Shown piece after piece: positions 9,923 to 20,731 of a stretch of 64,000 nt of DNA. Made by a program: the position numbers and the translations under genes. The notes below the pieces were generated by a model. The model was not told where the DNA came from and did no database searches. It worked only from the letters and a program-made list of their open reading frames with translations. How positions within the stretch are numbered: the stretch's first letter is position 1; every line of letters begins with the position of its first letter. The stretch spans positions 1,158,001-1,222,000 of the forward strand of contig NZ_CP034118.1 in assembly GCF_003856495.1 (NCBI RefSeq), written 5' to 3'. The stretch comes from Staphylospora marina (GTDB lineage Bacteria; Bacillota; Bacilli; Thermoactinomycetales; Thermoactinomycetaceae).

Positions 9923-11257
9923 ATGAAGGAACCGTTGGATCAGGTCGAACTGGGCATCATCGGGGAGGTGCTGAGAAAGAAGAGAAAAAGCATGCGGAAG
10001 CGCATGAGAGATCTGGCGGATGAATTTGTGTCCACCGCGACGATCAGCAACATCGAACGCGGCTTGCCGATCGTCAACCCGGCAAAAATCCTGCATTATG
10101 CGAAAAAACTGGGCATCGGTCCGGACGAATTGCCCGCCATCGTCCGTCGGTACAACCAAGGCGACGATGAACGGGAAGCGGAGCTGATGTCCATTCTGAG
10201 CAACATTGACCTGGGAGATGCGCGGGAAGGTTTGGCAAGGTTGCAAGCACTCGATATTCCCGCATCCTCGCCTCAACACTTGATGAAGCAATTCCTGATG
10301 GGGAAGCATTTTTTCAATCAGGGAAAGTGGTCCAAGGCGCAAACTTACTTTTCCGAAGTTTTGCGCTCCGTGGACAAATATCCTTCACTGCGGAGGAGCA
10401 ATCTCAAAGCGTATTGTTGCTATGATTTGGGGCGTGTCTTTTATTACAAGAATGATTTGACAAACGCATTGGGGTACAACCAGTTGGGAATTGACGCTTA
10501 TGTTCGTGACTGTGACAAGAACCGCAGCCAAATCATCCATTCCCTGAAAGTGGCCAAAGCCATCTATCTGGAAAAGTTGGAGCGTCTGGACGAGGCACTT
10601 CAGGCATTGGATGAGTTGTGGGAACACATCGCGGACATCCGAAGCGTGCAAGTGTTGTTGAACATTTATGAAACAAAAGCAGATATTCTCACAAGGAAAA
10701 AGCGTTATGATGAAGCAATCGAAATTGCCTGGGAGGGGATTGAGATTGCGCGGATCAACCTTGCTTATGAGCGCGCGCATGATTTGTGGACAACGTTGGG
10801 GAGCGTCTATCTGCAAAAAAAAGCGTACGAGAAGGCCGAATATTGCATCCGCACGGCGCTCAGCATGCGAAAACGTGTCAACGGGGAGTTTCTTCTGGTA
10901 AAAGCGTACACGTTGTGGGGAATGTTGTGCATGAGGACGGAGAGATGGGAAGAAGCCCTGACCGCATTGCAAACCGCGGTTCAATTGGGGGAAAAAACGA
11001 ATGACGCGAGACGGCACGTCATGGCACTGATCGTGTTGGGGGATTGGTATCAGTTGCAGGGCAGATACGAAGAAGCGGTCTCCCCCCTGCAAAAGGCGCA
11101 TGAACTGGCCACGGAACACCAGTTTCTCAAGCAAAGACACATTACGCTTGTGGAGTTGAGCAAATGCTGGAAGCGCCTGAACAGGGGGGAATTTATAAAC
11201 AGTCTTGAAAATCTGTTTGAAGTTGAATTACAATTTTCGCAAGACAGAACCATTTGA
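9923..11257 (+). CDS. XRE-type HTH regulator with TPR domain (RNPP-like)
   Basis: A 444-aa protein. Residues about 9-65 are a helix-turn-helix (IIGEVLRKKRKS...DEFVSTATISNIERGLPIVNPAKILHYAKKLG). The rest is a run of about seven TPR-like helix pairs (for example GKHFFNQGKWSKAQTYFSEV, LGDWYQLQGRYEEAVSPLQK). This architecture is that of the PlcR/NprR/Rap-related regulators that bind short re-imported peptides. The ATG follows GGGGGAATGCCGG. A 16-codon ORF with its own strong ribosome binding site follows after 22 bp and could encode a partner peptide. Target genes are unknown. It replaces ordinary Bacillus-type content at this point of the backbone, so it is accessory. Confidence 0.85.
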   Translation: MKEPLDQVELGIIGEVLRKKRKSMRKRMRDLADEFVSTATISNIERGLPIVNPAKILHYAKKLGIGPDELPAIVRRYNQGDDEREAELMSILSNIDLGDAREGLARLQALDIPASSPQHLMKQFLMGKHFFNQGKWSKAQTYFSEVLRSVDKYPSLRRSNLKAYCCYDLGRVFYYKNDLTNALGYNQLGIDAYVRDCDKNRSQIIHSLKVAKAIYLEKLERLDEALQALDELWEHIADIRSVQVLLNIYETKADILTRKKRYDEAIEIAWEGIEIARINLAYERAHDLWTTLGSVYLQKKAYEKAEYCIRTALSMRKRVNGEFLLVKAYTLWGMLCMRTERWEEALTALQTAVQLGEKTNDARRHVMALIVLGDWYQLQGRYEEAVSPLQKAHELATEHQFLKQRHITLVELSKCWKRLNRGEFINSLENLFEVELQFSQDRTI

Positions 11258-12289: not shown

Positions 12290-12330
12290 AAACCGGGGTG
12301 TGGTTGCATCACGCCCCGGTTTGTTTTTTT
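12290..12330 (+). terminator. Rho-independent terminator of cse60
   Basis: Stem AAACCGGGG / CCCCGGTTT with a 15-nt loop, then GTTTTTTT. The last codons of the opposing small membrane protein gene (12309-12590) lie inside it, so the units converge. Confidence 0.8.
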
Positions 12331-12590
12331 CTTAGCCATGCGGCCAGACCCATGTTGAGAAATCCGCCCAACAGGGCCACCAGCAGGAGTCCCTGGCCCA
12401 ATCGGACGTAGAAAGATCCGCCGGCCTGGATGTCGGCATGAAAGATGAGCGCACCGAACAGATCCAGCTTGACGGAAGGCCACCCCTGCATGCTGCCCAC
12501 CGTGGCGTAGAGAAAGCTCCCGGCAATGATCAGGACGAACAGCAGGATGGCTCCCGAAAGGAACGGCATGATCAGGGAATGCTTTTTCAT
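12309..12590 (-). CDS. Small membrane protein, last gene of the PqqD-M50/ABC operon
   Basis: 93 aa, not recognised. Two strongly hydrophobic helices (about residues 8-30, IMPFLSGAILLFVLIIAGSF, and 65-86, LGQGLLLVALLGGFLNMGL) flank a loop with a weakly hydrophobic stretch (KLDLFGALIFHA). The C-terminus is basic (RKKQTGA). It starts 3 bp after the protease stop, so it is translationally coupled. In peptide-toxin operons a small membrane protein at this place is often the immunity factor; that is inference only. Confidence 0.75.
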   Translation of the reverse strand: MKKHSLIMPFLSGAILLFVLIIAGSFLYATVGSMQGWPSVKLDLFGALIFHADIQAGGSFYVRLGQGLLLVALLGGFLNMGLAAWLRKKQTGA

Positions 12591-12593
12591 CGG

Positions 12594-13508
12594 TCAGTCC
12601 TCCTTTCCGGGTGCGGCTTCCCGAACGGACTGTTTGATGACCGCGAGGAGCTTCAGGGAGCTCCTGATTTTTTTTCCGTCGGCCATCGGAGGAACCAGGG
12701 AAAACAGATGAACTCCGAATGCCGCCACCGGAAGCCATGCGGCATATTCCCCGGAGACGGGAATGATTCCGGTGAGGACGGCGATCGCCAGAAGAACGGC
12801 ACACAAGCCCGGCACAAGAGGGCCGGCCAATGAAATGATCAATTCATCCCGGGGAGGTCTCATTTTGTGGACGATCTGCAAATACCCCGGTTTGGTGCAG
12901 AAAAACGCCTGCTCCCGGGGAGTAGAGACCCGAAAGAACGCGACGGCATGTCCCGTTTCGTGGAGAATCAGACCCAGATACAGAGAAACGGTGAAGAAAA
13001 CGGCTTCCTGAAGATTCATCAGGTTCAGGGCCGAAAGAAATCCGCAAATCAGCGCGGCGATCACCAGCAATTGAATGCCCAGTGAACGCAGGACGGCGCC
13101 CGTGATGGTTCGCAGGATGCCGAACCATCCCCCGTCGCGCGTCAGAGAGATTCTGTGGCGGATGCCGGTCAGAGGAGCCTGCAGTGTTCGAAGCAGGACG
13201 AGCATCCTCAGAAGCTGGTTCTGAAGACGGACGGTGAGCGGAGGTTTCCGGAAGTTGAGCAGATATTCACGGTTCAGATGGGCCATCGTTTCGATCAGAT
13301 CCGCTTGCACCTCGGCGTCCGGCCATCCGTACCGTTCGCATACCGTCCGGACGATTTCCGCGATGCTGCGCTTCCCGTCCACTTCGCCGAGCAAGACCTG
13401 TCCCGTTTCATTGACGGGGTGCAGGATGTCCAGTGCGGCGTCAAAGATGTGCCCTTCGCGGAGTTCCACCTGTTCCGGCCAGACCGGAACGGAATCGGGA
13501 CGGATCAT
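12594..13508 (-). CDS. PqqD-like domain fused to an M50 (site-2-type) membrane metalloprotease
   Basis: 304 aa. Residues about 12-86 look like a PqqD fold (VELREGHIFDAALDILHPVNE..., GKRSIAEIVRTVCERYG, a final helix ending LNREYLLNF), the peptide-binding RRE module of RiPP pathways. The rest is an M50 protease: membrane helices around 142-165 and 168-190, the zinc motif HETGH (183-187) in a helix, and the third-ligand region LVPPMADGKK with D277. All catalytic residues are present. The ATG overlaps the permease stop (ATGA). The likely role is to bind and cleave the leader of a small peptide, presumably the 65-aa product at the head of the operon. B. subtilis yydFGHIJ has a comparable M50 protease and ABC pair, but also a radical SAM enzyme that is absent here. 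Confidence 0.8.
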   Translation of the reverse strand: MIRPDSVPVWPEQVELREGHIFDAALDILHPVNETGQVLLGEVDGKRSIAEIVRTVCERYGWPDAEVQADLIETMAHLNREYLLNFRKPPLTVRLQNQLLRMLVLLRTLQAPLTGIRHRISLTRDGGWFGILRTITGAVLRSLGIQLLVIAALICGFLSALNLMNLQEAVFFTVSLYLGLILHETGHAVAFFRVSTPREQAFFCTKPGYLQIVHKMRPPRDELIISLAGPLVPGLCAVLLAIAVLTGIIPVSGEYAAWLPVAAFGVHLFSLVPPMADGKKIRSSLKLLAVIKQSVREAAPGKED

Positions 13509-14977
13509 GACGTTTCCCTCCTTGTCTCGATCGTGGCGGAAGCAAACCAGAAAAATGTCACGAGCACGCAGGTGACAACCAAGCTCCATGCGGGGGATTC
13601 GGGATCCCACAGAGAATTGGTGAGCAGATACAGCGGCACGCTCATCACCAGAAACACCAGATGCAGCATCAACAGACCCGTGGCCGACTTTTGACTGACG
13701 GGGAAAGCGGTTCCCGCGAAAAAGGCCGTGGCATGGATCAGGGCGGTGTAGGCGAGCAGGCGCAACCACCCGTCCGCTCCGAACGGTGTGAGACCGGCCA
13801 GCCGGATGAGGAGATCTGCCGAGACGGCCGTAAACAGCGGGCCGAGCACCAGATACACCAGCATTTTGCCCGTGATTCTCACATGTGGTTCCACCGGCAT
13901 CCAAAGGCCCGCATCATGGGTCCGATGATGCGACCGCAAAGGATATATGCTCAAAAAATAAGGCAAGCCGTAGAAAACCACGGAAGAAAAGACGATGCCC
14001 AGCATGGCTCTCAGCGGGTCTTCCGCCAACCGGATCGCCTGGCCGCCCAAAAGCAAAAGCAGCAGGAACAGACCGGTGTACAGATGGGTTTCCATGTCAC
14101 GGCTCCACTGTTTGAGCTCCAGAGAGGTGAATGCCATGACCGGACGGCGGGAAAACGGCAGACGTGCAAGCGGCCTCCAATGGGATGAAGGTTCGTGGGG
14201 CGGGTCTTCCCGGAGAACTAGGTGCCGAAGGATCCATCCCCCGATCAGGGCCCACACGGCCAAACCGGCGGCGGCCAGCGGATCCCCCTGAAGCAGGGTT
14301 CGGACAAAGAGAGAAGGCGGGAACCAGACCGCGGCATCGGGCGGGAAGAAAAACGCCAGCGCTCCGATGAGCATCAGCCCGGCCGTCAGCATGGCCGAAT
14401 GCCAGGCGCGTTCGGATGCCAATCCGCTTCTCAGGGACAGCATCCGTACTCCTCGACGAAGCACGTACTGGAACACGAGCGCCCAAACACCTGCCGCCGT
14501 CATCAGGAGGAGATGGAGCGGAAGGGACATCAGCCGGATCCCGTTGCCCAGCGGACCGGTCAAAACCAGGAGAATCGGCCAGAAGAGCAGGACGATGATC
14601 AGCAGTTCCAGGAGAAGTCCCGGCAACATCAGGCCCATGGCCTGAACCGAACGGGAGATCGGAAGCGTTTCCAGCATCCGGCTGCTGATTCCTCCGTACA
14701 GGATCCAATGAAGAAAAAGAACGGTGGCCAGAAAAATCAGGCCGAATGAGACCAAGGAAAAGTTGTTCAGCATCATCGAGGCGGTTTCTCCCGCCAGTCC
14801 GCCGGGCAGCATCGACAGCTGCTCCCGGGTGGAGGAAAACACATATGCGGACAAGGCACCCGCCGCGACAATCAGAACCACCGGCGTCATTCCCAGAAGC
14901 GGAGAGGAAGCGACCAACGTCTTCCAACGGTTTCTCCACATTTTGAAGAGAAGACTACCAATCAGCCAGGATGCCAT
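13505..14977 (-). CDS. ABC transporter permease of the PqqD-M50 operon
   Basis: 490 aa, very hydrophobic, with about 12 predicted membrane helices in two halves separated by a hydrophilic stretch near residues 255-285 (REDPPHEPSSHWRPLARLPFSRRP). No soluble domain or periplasmic binding motif was seen. It overlaps the ATPase gene by 23 bp and the protease gene by 4 bp, so all are co-translated. The partner ATPase is of the export type, so peptide export or self-protection is the probable task. Not assignable to a named permease family by eye. Confidence 0.8.
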   Translation of the reverse strand: MASWLIGSLLFKMWRNRWKTLVASSPLLGMTPVVLIVAAGALSAYVFSSTREQLSMLPGGLAGETASMMLNNFSLVSFGLIFLATVLFLHWILYGGISSRMLETLPISRSVQAMGLMLPGLLLELLIIVLLFWPILLVLTGPLGNGIRLMSLPLHLLLMTAAGVWALVFQYVLRRGVRMLSLRSGLASERAWHSAMLTAGLMLIGALAFFFPPDAAVWFPPSLFVRTLLQGDPLAAAGLAVWALIGGWILRHLVLREDPPHEPSSHWRPLARLPFSRRPVMAFTSLELKQWSRDMETHLYTGLFLLLLLLGGQAIRLAEDPLRAMLGIVFSSVVFYGLPYFLSIYPLRSHHRTHDAGLWMPVEPHVRITGKMLVYLVLGPLFTAVSADLLIRLAGLTPFGADGWLRLLAYTALIHATAFFAGTAFPVSQKSATGLLMLHLVFLVMSVPLYLLTNSLWDPESPAWSLVVTCVLVTFFWFASATIETRRETS

Positions 14978-15725
14978 CCAGATCCCCCGCTTTCCGTCCG
15001 GCGTCCGTCAGTTTCAGGTACACTTCTTCCAATGTGGACGAGTCGGTAATTCTGAGCAGCTCTTCCGGTTCCCGGTCCGTCAATTTGTGACCGCGGTGGA
15101 TCAGACAAACCCGATCACACAGGTCCCGGGCGAAATCGAGCTGATGGGTGGAAAGGAGGATGGCCGTTCCCTTGTCCCTGAGTCGTTGCAACAACTGTTT
15201 GAGCAGAATCACGGAGTCAGGATCCAGCCCGGTCGTCGGTTCGTCCAGGATCAACAGCTTCGGCCGGTGAAGCAGTGCCGCCGCGAATTGAACTTTTTTC
15301 TTCATCCCGTGGGAATATCCGCGGAGCAGACGTTGTCTGGCATGTTCCAAACCGAAGAGTCGGATCCACTCGCCGATGGTTGAAGCGGTTTGCTCCTTGG
15401 GAATCTTCCGGAGAGCCGCCACGAAGTCAAGAAATTCATCCGCGGTGAGATCCTCCGGGAGATCGTCCGCATCCGGAACAATGCCGGCCCGGTGTCGGGT
15501 GAGCAAAGGCTGATCCGCCAAATCTTCTCCGAACACCCGGATGTTGCCGTCATCCGGTCTGGAGAGTCCGGTGATCATGCGAATGGTCGTGGTTTTCCCG
15601 GAGCCGTTGGGGCCGAGCAAGCCCAGGATTTCCCCGGGGTGAAGATGGAGGGACAATGACTGAACCGCCACGTTGCCTCCATATGTTTTTGTGACATTTT
15701 CCAGACAAAGAACGGGTTGGGTCAC
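14955..15725 (-). CDS. ABC transporter ATP-binding protein of the PqqD-M50 operon
   Basis: 256 aa. Walker A GPNGSGKTTT at about residues 38-47, Q-loop region, signature RGYSHGMKKKV (a variant of LSGGQ with YSHGM), Walker B KLLILDEPTTGLD, and the H-loop STHQLD. The GTG start follows GGAGG at 8 nt. The signature form is usual in bacteriocin-type and Nod-like export ATPases. The first part of the operon, a small peptide gene, ends in a terminator 45 bp upstream, so this gene needs readthrough or its own promoter. Confidence 0.92.
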   Translation of the reverse strand: MTQPVLCLENVTKTYGGNVAVQSLSLHLHPGEILGLLGPNGSGKTTTIRMITGLSRPDDGNIRVFGEDLADQPLLTRHRAGIVPDADDLPEDLTADEFLDFVAALRKIPKEQTASTIGEWIRLFGLEHARQRLLRGYSHGMKKKVQFAAALLHRPKLLILDEPTTGLDPDSVILLKQLLQRLRDKGTAILLSTHQLDFARDLCDRVCLIHRGHKLTDREPEELLRITDSSTLEEVYLKLTDAGRKAGDLDGILADW

Positions 15726-15769
15726 CGAAGACGCCTCCGTTTCTGTCGTTTGGCCGTCGGGGCCAAAAA

Positions 15770-15796
15770 GAAAAAAGACTTCCCCGGTCAGGGGAA
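15770..15796 (-). terminator. Intra-operon terminator/attenuator after the 65-aa peptide gene
   Basis: On the minus strand TTCCCC-TGACC-GGGGAA followed by GTCTTTTTTC. It lies between the peptide gene and the ATPase gene, as in bacteriocin operons where the structural gene is transcribed in excess. Confidence 0.7.
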
Positions 15797-15830
15797 ATTT
15801 TGTATAATCGTGTAAAGGCTGAATATCTGG

Positions 15831-15862
15831 AATCCGTCCATCGATTGTGGGCGGATTTTTTT
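15831..15862. other. Hairpin directly after the 65-aa peptide gene
   Basis: AATCCG...CGGATT with the pair CC/GG in the stem. The T-run is on the plus strand; on the minus strand it is a hairpin 4 nt after the peptide stop, possibly protecting the 3' end of the short transcript. A TATAAT on the plus strand at 15802-15807 has no gene downstream. Confidence 0.4.
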
Positions 15863-16058
15863 ACGGCAGGTCGCAGCCGACTTTCACGTAGCCGTTGCCC
15901 AGGTTGATCTCGGCGACGAAGTCTCCGCCTTTCATCAGGCAGTAGACGTAAGCGCCTCCGACTGCGATGAGGACAGCCATCGAAAGGACGAACCATTCCG
16001 TCACTTCATGCACGGACAGGTTTTTCTCGACCTGAACCATCGGTTTGCTGTAGGTCAT
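15861..16058 (-). CDS. 65-aa membrane-spanning peptide, candidate precursor or substrate of the PqqD-M50/ABC operon
   Basis: A soluble N-terminus (about residues 1-20), one hydrophobic helix (about 22-42, WFVLSMAVLIAVGGAYVYC), then MKGG and a 20-residue polar tail DFVAEINLGNGYVKVGCDLP with one Cys (C62) and several Gly. Strong ribosome binding site AAAGGAGG 8 nt before ATG. It is first in the operon and is cut off from it by a terminator. The layout of leader, helix, Gly-Gly and short tail suggests that the tail is released by the M50 protease, but it could equally be a small subunit or regulator. I recognise no family. Confidence 0.7.
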   Translation of the reverse strand: MTYSKPMVQVEKNLSVHEVTEWFVLSMAVLIAVGGAYVYCLMKGGDFVAEINLGNGYVKVGCDLP

Positions 16059-16113
16059 CCCGTTCGCCTCCTTTCACGGTTCCTGACCGGGGTTCATCAT
16101 AAATATATTGAAT

Positions 16114-16235
16114 ATTTGATGGCTTGTAAAATATCAAATGGAATCGAATTCTGTCGTTTTTTGCGGTAAAGCGGTTGCACACGTTTGTTTTCTCTGATTC
16201 TCGATTAATATTTACAATATTTTAAATCATGTAAA
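16114..16235 (-). promoter_or_regulatory. AT-rich control region of the peptide operon with two inverted repeats
   Basis: Upstream of the peptide gene, ATTTGAT-N12-ATCAAAT (16114-16139) and TTTACA-N13-TGTAAA (16211-16235). A TTGATA-17 bp-TATTCA on the minus strand at the first repeat is a weak sigma-A-like promoter. The AT content contrasts with the GC-rich genes. The rest of 16059-16284 shows nothing else. Confidence 0.4.
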
Positions 16236-16284
16236 AACTGGTACTCGGTTGGAGTTATGGGAAATGGTACCGTTTTCAAAGGAC

Positions 16285-16313
16285 AAAGGCTTCCGGTCAT
16301 CCCGGAAGCCTTT
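16285..16313. terminator. Terminator downstream of the amylopullulanase-like gene
   Basis: 12-bp stem AAAGGCTTCCGG / CCGGAAGCCTTT with a TCATC loop. It is 108 bp after the minus-strand gene stop. The plus-strand side has TTTGTGTTGTTTTTTC, so it could stop transcription both ways. Confidence 0.7.
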
Positions 16314-16420
16314 GTGTTGTTTTTTCGCGGGGGTTCTTTTTCCGGCGACCCGGAGAGCCGTGTGACATGGCTTCCATTCGGATCGCGGCAAGGGCATCGT
16401 GGCAAGGGCGCGGGAAACGG

Positions 16421-19400
16421 TCACTCCCTGATCAGCGTCAGGGTGATTTCCCGGGTGGCTTTGGCGATCGCTTCACCGTCGTTTTTGAAAATGGCGGATT
16501 TGTTTTCTTCCGAAGGTTCGACGCGAATGCGGATGGTGTTGGAACCGGGATTCAAGCTGACCGGATGGGAGAAGCTCATGTCGTCCTGAATGCTGACGCG
16601 CTGTCCGTTGATGGTGAGCACCCCTTCCTTGATCGCGTTGCCGGACAGCGTGACGGTTTCTTGCGAGACGGTTTGGCCGTCGGTGTGCGAGGTGATCACC
16701 ACCGGCATGTCAATCCAGCGCAAGATGCGGTCTTCCACTACCATGCGGTTGCCGCCCTGGTTGGTGACGGTGATGTTCAGATCGGTCCCGATCGCGCCGT
16801 ATCCGTACAGGCTGACATCATCATCATCCGGGATGTGCGGGGTGTGGTCCGCAAGACCTTCCTGGTCCCAGGTGCCGTTTTTGACATATTTGTAGGTGAT
16901 CGTTTCTCCTTCCGGGATTTCCGTGGTGAACGTGTAATCCGGAGAGACCGCTCCGGCGCGGGTCATTTCCCAAGCCCCCGTGTTCCAGCCGTTGCGGCTG
17001 TTCGGAATGGTCAGCTTCACGTTTTGCGGTGTGTAGTCGGGAACCCGAACCTTGAACGTGACCTGGACCATCACCAAGTCCGGAGTGACGGACACTTCAT
17101 CCGACACGATCGCATTTCCCCATCGATCATACACTTTCACCCGGTACCGGTAAGCGGTTCCGTTGGACACATCCAAATCCCTGAAAGTGGTCTGCTGCGG
17201 GTCCCAAAGACGTGCGATCTCCTTTCCGTTTCGCAGAATCACGGTAAGAAACGGATCGCGGGGATGGATGAGCGTCCACGCAAGACTGACCTGTCCGGAC
17301 TCCTGCTGCGGTTGGCGGAGATTCACGCCGTCGGCGGGAGGATCGGAATCATCTCCCTTGTGATAGGTGACCGTTCGGGTTTCACCGGTTTTCCAAGTCC
17401 GTCCCGAATCGCTGGAAAAAGCAAACCGCAATGTGTACTCACCCGGTTCGAGGGGAACGAAGGAGGCCGAGAAGAAGCCCGCGTTCCCGCTCTGGCCGGC
17501 ATATGCCGCTTCCGCCTGTGTCCATTCCGAAGATCCGGGGACTTGGATTTCCAGCCGGGCCGTGATTCCTTCTTCCAGATCACGAGGCGTCGCATTGTCC
17601 ACCACAAGCTCGGCCGTCACGGTTTGGGGCTTGGACAGGTCCAGCACTCCGCCGGCAAGATCTCCCGTCAACCGGATGGTGTGATTGCCGGAGGTGAGCG
17701 GAATGTGCGGGACGGCGGAGATGGTCGTTTTGTCCGATTCGTTGCCCCGTGCGTCAACGGCGGTGACGGCAAATTCGTACTTGCGGCCGTTGTCCAGCTG
17801 CTTCAAGGTGATGCTCCGGTTCTTGGTGACGGCCACCTCCTGGTAAAGTCCGCCGCTGACGGTGGTGACATACACCTTGTATTTCGGCGCCGAACCTTTC
17901 CAGCTGAGGGTCACTTCTCCGTTTCCTTCCCGGACGTTCAGGTCCTTCACGGGGCGGGGAGGTTGGGTGACGTGATCGGCGATCCACAACTGTCCGGCGA
18001 GCGGCGGCAGGGTGAGCCGGATCTCGCCGTTATTTACGGTCGTATGGGAACCGGTCGACAGTCGGTCTTTGAAACGGGTGCCGTTTCCGGCGAACTTTTG
18101 CATGTCGATCATGATCGTTTGCGTCGTCGATCCGCGGTTGACGGCGACGATGGCAGCCTGACCGTCCCGTTTTCGTCCGATCACCAGAATGTCGCCGGAT
18201 GCATGCAAGATGCGGGTATCGCCCAGAGCGAGCAGGGATTGGAACTGCTTTCGAATTTGTCCCAGCTGTCGGTAGTGGGCGAGCAGGTCCCGGTGTTCAT
18301 TGCCCCAGGGATAGGGGCGCCGGTCATCGGGATCTTTGGAACCCGTCAATCCCGCTTCATCCCCGTAGTAGATCGTGGGAGCACCGGCAAAGCCCATTTG
18401 CAGGAGAGAGGCCAGTTTCATCCGGCGAATGCCCAGCTCATGGTTGTACTTGGGATCATCTTCCGCCCGTTCATGGGAATCGGTGCCTCCTCCGAGCAGG
18501 AACACCGCCCGGGCCGTGTCATGTGAACCGATCAGATTCATCATGGCATGCCATGATTCGGAGGGATAATCCTCCCGAATCGCTTCAAGCTGTTCGGCCA
18601 CCTTTTCTGCATGTCCGTTTCTGAGCAAATCCAACACGGCATCGCGGAACCGGTAGTTCATCACGGAGTCGAACAGATCCCCGAGAAGATACTTGGAGGC
18701 ATCGTCCCAGATCTCGCCGAGGATGATCGGATCGGTCTTTTTCTCCTTTTTCAATTCCTTGCGGAACTCCCGCCAAAATTCCGGATCCACCTCGTTGGCC
18801 ACGTCCAGTCTCCAGCCGGAAGCGCCGCGTTTCAGCCAGGTTTTGGCGACGGAATCTTTGGCGTACATGATGTAGTTCGCAAAAGACCGGTTGTTCAGCT
18901 CCGACGGGTGATCCGTTGCATCCCCGGGCACGGAGGCGATCTCCGGCAGAGAATCGAATCCCCACCAGGCTTGGTATTTGTACACGCCGTTTTCTTTCCG
19001 GTTTTCGATGCGGAACCAGTTGTGGAAGCCGTAAGGGCTGAATTCCTGCCCTTCGGCGCGGAGCTGTTGTTCGACGCGTTTTTTGGCTTCCTCTTCGGGC
19101 ATGCCGGTATTGACCAGGTCATAGACCCGGGACCAGTATTCGTAGGCACCCACCGTTTTGTACTTGCCGTACCGGTCAAAATAAATCGAATCATCTCCGA
19201 CATGGTTGAACACGCCGTCCAGAATCAAGCGCATGCCGCGCTTTTTCAGTTCCTTGACAAATGCGTTGAATTCTTCCGGAGTGCCGAACATCGGGTCGAT
19301 TTGCGTGTAGTCGGTGGCGTCGTATTTGTGGTTGGAAGCGGCGTGGGCGATCGGATTGAGATAGAGCACGTTGACACCCAGCGATTGCAAATAATCCAAC

Positions 19401-20731
19401 TTTTTGCGGATGCCTTCGATGTCTCCGCCGAAAAAGTCGTTGCTCCAGATTCCGTCTCCGTCATATCCTTCACGGTCCGCCAGCCGGGGATTGTCCGGAA
19501 GGCTGTCCCAGGACCGGAGTTCGATCGGTTCCGAACCGCGGGCATTGTTTTTGGCCCGGTCATTGGACGGATTGCCGTTGAAGAAGCGGTCGGGGAAGAT
19601 CTGATATATTACGGCGTTTTTCATCCAGTCCGGCGTTCGATAGGAAGGGTCAAAGACCGTCAGTTGGAACAGTGCGGCGTGACTGTCGGCGGGCTGTCCC
19701 GTGCGGCCTTGATCGGCGTCTTCGCCGTATTCTTTCACCGCATCTCCGTCACGCACGATGAATTTGTAACCCCATACGCCCTTTTCCTCCGGCTTCACCA
19801 CGGCTTCCCAGAAATCGACCGGCATTCCGTCCACTTCGGCCCATCCCGCTTTGGTCATGTCGACGAGCTTGCTGTTGCCGGTGGTCTGGTTGCGGAGCAG
19901 CAACCGGGCATGGGTCAGGTCCCCTTTCTTGGCCCGCAACCGGATCCGTACGCTTTTGCCTGCTTCAACGGCGCCGAACGGGGAGCGATAGAGGGGATCC
20001 CAGGTGTCGTGGTACAGGGCGGATGCGGTGACGGAACCGTCGGGAACACCGGGATCATAGTCGGTATACACCGCTTTGGTTGCGTAATGGAAGAAGAAGG
20101 TGATCCTGCTTTCCGACAGCACGTTCAGCACGAAGTTTTCCGCCGGATAGGAGGGAGCGGACCAGTTGTTGCCCAGCACCACCTTGAATTGGTGGGTTCC
20201 TTTGGGAACATCGGCCGTCAGCGTGTATATTCCGTCACGGTCGGGGTCTTCCATGAGCGCGGTGGATTCCTCCGGAGACCAGTCTCTTCCGGCACCGATG
20301 TCGGGCTGCAGGTCGCCGACGATGCGGGGTTTGCGTTCGTCGGGCAACGGAACATGAACGGTCACGATCCGTGTGTTGTCGTTATAGGCAAACGTGACTT
20401 CGGAGGGCCATTCCAGGATCAGTTTGTAATTGGCGCCGCCCGCTTCACCGCCGATTCCGTAGTTTTCGTCCCACGATCCGTTCACCGCGATCTTGTATTC
20501 ATAGGTTCCCGCGGGAAGGGAGGCGCGGAGTTCATACTTGCCGTCTCCTTTGGGAGTCATCACGGTGGCGGGATCGGCCGGATTCCACTCTTCTTCTCCG
20601 CCCAGTTCATCCTGCAGATTTCCGACCAGCGTGATGGTTCTGCCGTCGGCAAGGGCAGGTTCGGTCAAGCTGAATGAAACCGTTTGCACAAACAGCGAAA
20701 ACAAACACAGCCATGTGAAAAAACGCCTCAT
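16421..20731 (-). CDS. Secreted multidomain alpha-amylase/pullulanase (GH13)
   Basis: 1436 aa with a signal peptide (about 1-29, ending TEPALADG). In order: two pullulanase-type starch-binding repeats (TITLVGNLQDELGGEEEWNP at ~33 and PRIVGDLQPDIGAGRDWSPE at ~135), an N-terminal amylase domain (~230-350), the GH13 barrel (~370-830), two fibronectin-type III-like modules with a carbohydrate-binding region between, and a CBM20-like C-terminus. The GH13 residues are intact: region I DGVFNH, nucleophile D643 in GWRLDVANE, acid/base E673 in GEIW, D738 in IGSHD. This is the architecture of thermophile amylopullulanases that cut alpha-1,4 and alpha-1,6 bonds of starch outside the cell. A cre-like site lies in the promoter. 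It is an insertion relative to the Bacillus backbone. Confidence 0.9.
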   Translation of the reverse strand: MRRFFTWLCLFSLFVQTVSFSLTEPALADGRTITLVGNLQDELGGEEEWNPADPATVMTPKGDGKYELRASLPAGTYEYKIAVNGSWDENYGIGGEAGGANYKLILEWPSEVTFAYNDNTRIVTVHVPLPDERKPRIVGDLQPDIGAGRDWSPEESTALMEDPDRDGIYTLTADVPKGTHQFKVVLGNNWSAPSYPAENFVLNVLSESRITFFFHYATKAVYTDYDPGVPDGSVTASALYHDTWDPLYRSPFGAVEAGKSVRIRLRAKKGDLTHARLLLRNQTTGNSKLVDMTKAGWAEVDGMPVDFWEAVVKPEEKGVWGYKFIVRDGDAVKEYGEDADQGRTGQPADSHAALFQLTVFDPSYRTPDWMKNAVIYQIFPDRFFNGNPSNDRAKNNARGSEPIELRSWDSLPDNPRLADREGYDGDGIWSNDFFGGDIEGIRKKLDYLQSLGVNVLYLNPIAHAASNHKYDATDYTQIDPMFGTPEEFNAFVKELKKRGMRLILDGVFNHVGDDSIYFDRYGKYKTVGAYEYWSRVYDLVNTGMPEEEAKKRVEQQLRAEGQEFSPYGFHNWFRIENRKENGVYKYQAWWGFDSLPEIASVPGDATDHPSELNNRSFANYIMYAKDSVAKTWLKRGASGWRLDVANEVDPEFWREFRKELKKEKKTDPIILGEIWDDASKYLLGDLFDSVMNYRFRDAVLDLLRNGHAEKVAEQLEAIREDYPSESWHAMMNLIGSHDTARAVFLLGGGTDSHERAEDDPKYNHELGIRRMKLASLLQMGFAGAPTIYYGDEAGLTGSKDPDDRRPYPWGNEHRDLLAHYRQLGQIRKQFQSLLALGDTRILHASGDILVIGRKRDGQAAIVAVNRGSTTQTIMIDMQKFAGNGTRFKDRLSTGSHTTVNNGEIRLTLPPLAGQLWIADHVTQPPRPVKDLNVREGNGEVTLSWKGSAPKYKVYVTTVSGGLYQEVAVTKNRSITLKQLDNGRKYEFAVTAVDARGNESDKTTISAVPHIPLTSGNHTIRLTGDLAGGVLDLSKPQTVTAELVVDNATPRDLEEGITARLEIQVPGSSEWTQAEAAYAGQSGNAGFFSASFVPLEPGEYTLRFAFSSDSGRTWKTGETRTVTYHKGDDSDPPADGVNLRQPQQESGQVSLAWTLIHPRDPFLTVILRNGKEIARLWDPQQTTFRDLDVSNGTAYRYRVKVYDRWGNAIVSDEVSVTPDLVMVQVTFKVRVPDYTPQNVKLTIPNSRNGWNTGAWEMTRAGAVSPDYTFTTEIPEGETITYKYVKNGTWDQEGLADHTPHIPDDDDVSLYGYGAIGTDLNITVTNQGGNRMVVEDRILRWIDMPVVITSHTDGQTVSQETVTLSGNAIKEGVLTINGQRVSIQDDMSFSHPVSLNPGSNTIRIRVEPSEENKSAIFKNDGEAIAKATREITLTLIRE

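What the first reader, a model, noticed from the sequence alone, without database searches (positions are those of the whole stretch)
15770..16058. 65-aa membrane peptide followed by its own terminator
The first gene of that operon encodes a peptide with one membrane helix, a Gly-Gly (44-45) and a 20-residue tail with one Cys. A minus-strand terminator (TTCCCC/GGGGAA + T6) cuts it from the transporter genes. This gives a high precursor-to-machinery ratio, as in known bacteriocin operons. Intramembrane cleavage by the M50 enzyme would release the tail outside the cell. I recognise no family.
Basis: partly seen in the sequence, partly recalled or inferred. Interest (0 to 1): 0.7.

Follow-up and report, generated by a model that had tools for sequence, protein, structure and literature searches.

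The report
Membrane peptide precursor with looped mRNA
A 65-residue membrane peptide heads a conserved but patchily distributed bacterial operon that looks built to dock it on, cut it with and export it by a dedicated membrane protease and transporter, and in nine relatives the front end of its messenger RNA is predicted to pair with the RNA just behind the peptide gene.

Summary
The peptide gene, membrane helix, Gly-Gly and terminator-like hairpin are present as described. The peptide belongs to a family with no Pfam or NCBIfam model, traced here in 27 representative loci across Bacillota. Every complete locus also has an M50 site-2 protease, ABC transporter and 2-TM protein. In 16 loci the protease carries an N-terminal RRE (PqqD) domain, and exactly those 16 peptides carry an RRE-type leader motif ([YWF]xxPx-hydrophobic; YSKPMV here); the 11 with RRE-less proteases lack it. 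So the precursor reading is supported, but the C-terminal part is the conserved part. The 'terminator' is one arm of something larger: in nine loci, this one included, the predicted 5' end of the transcript pairs with the peptide-ATPase intergenic region. Arm sequences differ between loci, yet own-locus pairing ranks first in 8 of 9. Most other loci have a local hairpin there instead; the T-run is not conserved. The product (bacteriocin or signal) and the role of the RNA structure are unproven.

The parts
15861..16058 (-). 65-aa precursor-like membrane peptide (P0001)
   Evidence: ORF with SD; homologues
16035..16052 (-). leader motif Y3-S-K-P-M-V8, RRE-binding type
   Evidence: present in 16/16 RRE+ loci (15 strict, 1 with F), 0/11 RRE- loci; motif defined in PMC13381572
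15933..16013 (-). helix 16-42, transmembrane
   Evidence: AlphaFold2 model, mean pLDDT 74, helix blocks 81-85
15870..15923 (-). C-terminal beta-hairpin 46-63 with C62; C40 lies at 15939-15941
   Evidence: model; two C-terminal Cys in 27/27 peptides
16102..16130 (-). sigma-70-type promoter TTTACA-17-TATATT
16082..16092 (-). 5' arm CCCCGGTCAGG of the long-range RNA helix, within the first ~15 nt of the predicted transcript
15782..15792 (-). 3' arm CCTGACCGGGG of the long-range RNA helix
15771..15798 (-). terminator-like hairpin TTCCCC/GGGGAA + T6, overlapping the 3' arm
   Evidence: local fold z -2.3
14955..15725 (-). ABC transporter ATPase
   Evidence: PF00005 1.2e-30
13505..14977 (-). putative ABC permease, 490 aa, no Pfam match
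   Evidence: same position in relatives
12594..13508 (-). RRE (PqqD) domain 1-88 fused to site-2 protease 125-295 (HExxH, PPxxDGK)
   Evidence: PF05402 3.8e-7; 9/9 members of A4; model pLDDT 88, RRE and S2P folds
12309..12590 (-). 93-aa two-TM protein; fused to the protease in L058
12290..12322 (.). operon-end terminator-like hairpin

Best explanation
The operon makes and exports a small disulfide-bonded peptide. The precursor has a cytoplasmic leader and one membrane helix (N-in, C-out). The RRE domain on the protease binds the YSKPMV leader. The fused site-2 protease cuts within the helix, and the C-terminal piece leaves the cell with the help of the ABC transporter. C40 and C62 form a disulfide, for which some relatives encode a dedicated thiol oxidoreductase. 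The 2-TM protein probably assists the protease or gives immunity. The peptide cistron is set apart from the machinery genes by double-stranded RNA behind it. In this sub-group that element is formed with the transcript's own 5' end, a panhandle that should protect or set apart the peptide mRNA and keep peptide output high; control of translation is also possible. Shown: gene order, leader-RRE association, two conserved cysteines, predicted folds, recurring complementarity. Inferred: topology, cleavage, export, disulfide, RNA function, biological activity (bacteriocin or signal).
For: Relatives keep the same operon. RRE domain <-> leader motif 16/16 vs 0/11; loci collected after the rule was noticed all fit. 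Protease residues 1-88 match lasso B1-leader complexes 6jx3 (Z 10.2, 2.1 A, 81 aligned) and 5v1u/5v1v and PqqD 5sxy; 125-295 match site-2 proteases 3b4r, RseP and SpoIVFB. L058 fuses the protease to the 2-TM protein. Thiol oxidoreductases end the operon in L048 and L091 (nearest model PedC/BrcD, E 4.5e-7 and 6.2e-7, below its cut-off) and in L149 and L151 (Thioredoxin_4). 5'-end pairing: own intergenic region ranks first in 8/9 loci in rows and columns, and in 200,000 permutations no arrangement other than the true one reached the observed energy sum (best other -244.0 against -250.4); 16- and 19-bp perfect helices turned up in loci fetched later. Precedents: RRE motif (PMC13381572), EpeP M50 with EpeX (PMC10885120).
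Against: No expression, cleavage or activity data. No modification enzyme in the operon, unusual for RRE systems. The core is strongly conserved (15 synonymous to 2 non-synonymous codons between genera), atypical of bacteriocins. The association test ignores shared ancestry. Transcription starts are consensus predictions. The RNA helix is weak in L153, and L048 and L100 show neither structure clearly.
Confidence: 0.68

Rival explanations
1. The product is a cell-cell signal (pheromone) rather than a bacteriocin; cutting by the M50 enzyme releases a conserved extracellular peptide that is sensed. (A variant of the best explanation that differs in what the product does.)
For: The core is conserved across genera and two classes. 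Regulators lie beside the operon: Rgg (L048), LytTR (L151, L152), LuxR-type response regulators (L102, L149).
Against: Such regulators also sit beside bacteriocin loci. No dedicated receptor is conserved. The thiol oxidoreductases of L048 and L091 are nearest to bacteriocin maturation enzymes.
Confidence: 0.3
2. The peptide is an unprocessed small subunit or regulator of the ABC transporter and protease complex in the membrane.
For: Conserved over helix and tail, with strict co-occurrence.
Against: A leader motif exactly where an RRE is present, a separately structured cistron, tandem copies in L135 and a place at the operon's end in L134-L136 fit a product better than a subunit.
Confidence: 0.15
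3. The hairpin at 15778-15798 is an ordinary intrinsic terminator or attenuator and the long-range complementarity is incidental.
For: It has a T6 run and a good local fold; the 11-bp match alone is reached by 1% of random placements in this window.
Against: L016, L017, L058, L154 and L155 have long-range helices of 15-24 bp and no local hairpin better than shuffles.
Confidence: 0.2
4. The inverted repeat acts as DNA: sites of a site-specific recombinase that flips the peptide cistron on and off.
For: Perfect 16-19 bp inverted repeats flank the peptide gene in L016, L154 and L155.
Against: Arm sequences differ in every locus; L015 and L017 contain G-U pairs and L058 and L152 bulges; no recombinase was noticed beside L015-L017 in the ORF lists.
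Confidence: 0.05

Closest known systems
Epipeptide EpeX/YydF system of Bacillus subtilis (epeXEPAB)
   Same: small precursor, M50 protease (EpeP) and ABC transporter (EpeP: PMC10885120; operon layout from memory)
   Different: no radical SAM epimerase found in the operons here; protease carries an RRE; precursor has a full membrane helix and two conserved cysteines
RRE-dependent RiPPs (lasso B1, LPP)
   Same: [Y/W]xxPx[L/V/I/F/A] leader motif and RRE fold (PMC13381572)
   Different: RRE fused to an intramembrane protease; no modifying enzyme in the operon
Daptides
   Same: the M50 domain has a faint match to the daptide protease model (E 0.0018)
   Different: far below that model's cut-off; no other operon protein matched a daptide model
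Class II bacteriocins with a PedC/BrcD thiol oxidoreductase
   Same: small peptide with a cysteine pair; PedC/BrcD-like protein in L048 and L091
   Different: M50 protease and a DrrA-like ATPase with separate permease; no C39 leader peptidase seen in the operon
Type I toxin mRNAs with 5'-3' long-distance interaction (hok, aapA)
   Same: mRNA of a small hydrophobic peptide closed by pairing of its ends (PMC6733600)
   Different: partner lies in an intergenic region inside an operon; the arms end before the SD; antisense RNA not looked for

Membership tests
RRE-dependent RiPP system | RRE (PqqD-like) domain | tested here: met
   PF05402 3.8e-7, above gathering; RRE fold Z about 10 to lasso B1 and PqqD
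RRE-dependent RiPP system | precursor leader with RRE-binding motif | tested here: met
   YSKPMV; 16/16 RRE+ against 0/11 RRE-; binding itself not tested
RRE-dependent RiPP system | post-translational modification enzyme in the cluster | tested here: not met
   none in the operon by Pfam or NCBIfam; thiol oxidoreductase only in some relatives
RRE-dependent RiPP system | leader removal and secreted core | not testable with these tools
   needs mass spectrometry
Epipeptide (EpeX/YydF) | radical SAM epimerase and YydF-like precursor | tested here: not met
   no radical SAM in the operon and no NCBIfam match of the peptide
M50 site-2 protease | HExxH and DG motifs, S2P fold | tested here: met
   invariant H183 E184 H187 D277 K279; 3b4r, RseP, SpoIVFB; Pfam M50 score itself is below gathering
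Double-glycine bacteriocin | conserved GG cleavage site before the core | tested here: not met
   GG at 44-45 replaced in many relatives
Type I toxin mRNA with end-to-end pairing | pairing of 5' and 3' regions of the mRNA | tested here: inconclusive
   predicted with high probability and recurring, but mRNA ends are not mapped
Type I toxin mRNA with end-to-end pairing | antisense RNA antitoxin | not tested
   no transcript data; Rfam gave only sub-threshold hits

The most novel reading that the evidence does not exclude
A new class of exported bacterial peptide whose precursor is docked by an RRE fused to an intramembrane protease, and whose cistron is set apart inside a polycistronic mRNA by pairing of the transcript's 5' end with the following intergenic region, an element that relatives replace with a local hairpin.
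Probability: 0.5. Interest if true: 0.82.

Novelty: new variant of a known kind. Interest (0 to 1): 0.7.

Why it matters
If true, it adds an exported-peptide family where the peptide gene has no family model, shows an RRE used to deliver a membrane-embedded precursor to an intramembrane protease, and offers a natural comparison (panhandle against local hairpin) of how bacteria keep a product cistron abundant relative to its machinery. The leader-RRE rule gives a direct way to find and pair further members.

Tried and rejected
Family libraries for the peptide: Pfam and NCBIfam, PHROGs, PADLOC: no convincing match. Rfam on 15400-16450: only sub-threshold hits. A genome-contig scan with the window's protease found no relative; the M50 alignment was too diverse for that scan. 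Plasmids and viral contigs gave no peptide relatives with the Exiguobacterium query, and the window's protease found only distant M50 or PqqD proteins on plasmids, so mobile carriage was not supported. L014 and several weak class or phylum hits (L094, L095) are not family members. Housekeeping membrane protein: rejected, as distribution is patchy (1 of 6 and 1 of 10 genomes in two groups) and tied to the operon. A whole-genome background for the helix could not be run, so local DNA and shuffles were used. Literature searches found no description of an RRE-M50 fusion with such a peptide in the open-access set; subscription papers were not searchable, so prior description cannot be excluded.

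Full report
Observation. The ORF at 15861-16058 (-) is as described: 65 aa, good Shine-Dalgarno, one helix, Gly-Gly at 44-45 and a tail with Cys62. The AlphaFold2 model (mean pLDDT 74) gives a disordered leader 1-15, helix 16-42 and a beta-hairpin 46-63. The hairpin with T6 at 15771-15798 is there.

Family. Searches found relatives first in the same order and then, with growing alignments, across Bacilli and other Bacillota. Named hosts include Exiguobacterium, Bacillus suaedae, Lederbergia lenta, a Lactobacillaceae MAG and a Clostridia MAG. 27 representative peptides (near-duplicates and truncated loci left out) were compared: all keep two C-terminal cysteines 22-26 apart. Most also keep a Trp before or in the helix and a G-x-x-F-like stretch after the first Cys. 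No family model matches.

Operon. The usual order is peptide, ABC ATPase, about 450-510 aa permease, then M50 protease and an about 90-aa 2-TM protein in either order. In L134-L136 the peptide follows the protease, and L135 has two tandem copies; their transporter genes lie upstream of what was listed and were not checked. In L152 no ATPase lies between peptide and permease. In L018 no 2-TM gene was found after the protease. In L058 the protease and 2-TM protein are one ORF.

Leader and RRE. The window's protease has a PqqD domain (PF05402, 3.8e-7), as have all nine members of alignment A4. Its model (pLDDT 88) matches RRE-leader complexes over 1-88 and site-2 proteases over 125-295. [Y/W]xxPx[L/V/I/F/A] is the published RRE-binding motif (PMC13381572). 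With F allowed at the first position it occurs in 16/16 peptides whose protease has the domain and 0/11 of the others; shuffled N-termini give it in 4.7%. Loci collected after the rule was noted (L132, L134-L137; L149-L155) all fit: seven have both domain and motif, five neither. For L132, L150, L152 and L153 the domain was judged from length and sequence; in L151 and L154 it is detected below Pfam's cut-off. L149-L155 were found with a profile built from motif-bearing peptides, so the motif side of that set is not unbiased; the domain side is. The exact test (7.7e-8) ignores shared ancestry.

Core. Between Exiguobacterium and two other lineages, one in another class, the last 36 codons differ by 15 synonymous and 2 non-synonymous changes. 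The C-terminal part is thus under strong purifying selection, unlike typical variable bacteriocin cores. Thiol oxidoreductases close some operons (L048, L091; L149, L151), which supports a disulfide.

RNA. In the window 16082-16092 and 15782-15792 are perfect complements. Scoring upstream against intergenic DNA gave fitted p values of 0.0016, 0.0013, 2.4e-6 and 1.7e-6 in window, L015, L016 and L017 against shuffles, and nothing notable in the other eight loci tested then. Against random placements in local DNA the window alone is weak (6/600), L015 0/600, L016 and L017 1/600 each; those two placements equal the observed score and are probably the site itself. The arm starts at or within a few bases of the predicted transcription start. 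For nine loci the 25-nt 5' end was paired with every intergenic region: the own region ranks first in rows and columns for eight; L153 is the exception (ranks 3 and 5). The start used was the top promoter hit in most loci, a tied second in L016, and set by eye near a TAATAT in L153; the promoter of L155 is weak, so some of these choices were made with the arm in view. Loci without the long helix mostly have a strong local hairpin (z -2.7 to -7.0: L018, L049, L092, L093, L050, L053, L056, L091, L102, L103; L132, L133, L137; L149-L151); L055 is weaker (z -1.6) and L048 and L100 show neither clearly. Loci with the long helix have no significant local hairpin except the window. G-U pairs and bulges in some arms favour RNA over DNA inversion. 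One search used only 60 shuffles per locus after timed out, so its p and z values are rough.

Function. The best reading is an exported, cut, disulfide-bonded peptide, with signal and bacteriocin both open. The RNA element probably sets apart or protects the peptide cistron. End-to-end pairing that silences small toxin mRNAs is a known parallel (PMC6733600), but here the arms end before the Shine-Dalgarno.

How the analysis went. The leader rule and the panhandle were both noticed while reading loci and then formalised. Several helix scores were used: whole-duplex energy, ungapped helix score and 5'-end duplex energy. The whole-duplex version was less clear (z -0.8 for L015). L058 was negative by ungapped score (p 0.21) and counts as positive only with a bulge allowed; L152 likewise (p 0.05 for a different helix). 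The nine loci were chosen because a helix at the 5' end had been seen, so the ranking tests specificity of pairing, not how common it is; the fair count is nine of about 22 peptide-first loci examined.

Noticed in passing
window 9923-11257 (+): 444-aa XRE-type HTH with TPR repeats beyond the operon's end; resembles peptide-sensing regulators (HTH_3 3.8e-6, TPR).
   Followed up: partly
L048, about 0.6 kb upstream of the peptide: Rgg/GadR/MutR-type regulator (RGG_Cterm 2.4e-57).
   Followed up: partly
L151 4021-4743, L152 7781-8134, L149 3672-4349, L102 5075-5740: LytTR or LuxR-type regulators next to the operon.
   Followed up: partly
L018 162-1316: Two proteins with repeated Cys- and Gly-rich C-termini (CGVACAITAGTGC) near the operon, possibly another bacteriocin-like family.
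   Followed up: no
window 16421-20731 (-): 1436-aa amylopullulanase-like protein with two X25 stretches, alpha-amylase and CBM20 domains, directly upstream.
   Followed up: no
L055 11580-12476 and 9334-9585 (after turning the locus so that the peptide reads forward): A partial duplicate of a thioredoxin-like gene lies downstream of the operon.
   Followed up: no
window 16247-16310 (+): Sub-threshold match to the Na+ riboswitch model (20.1 bits, gathering 40.5).
   Followed up: no
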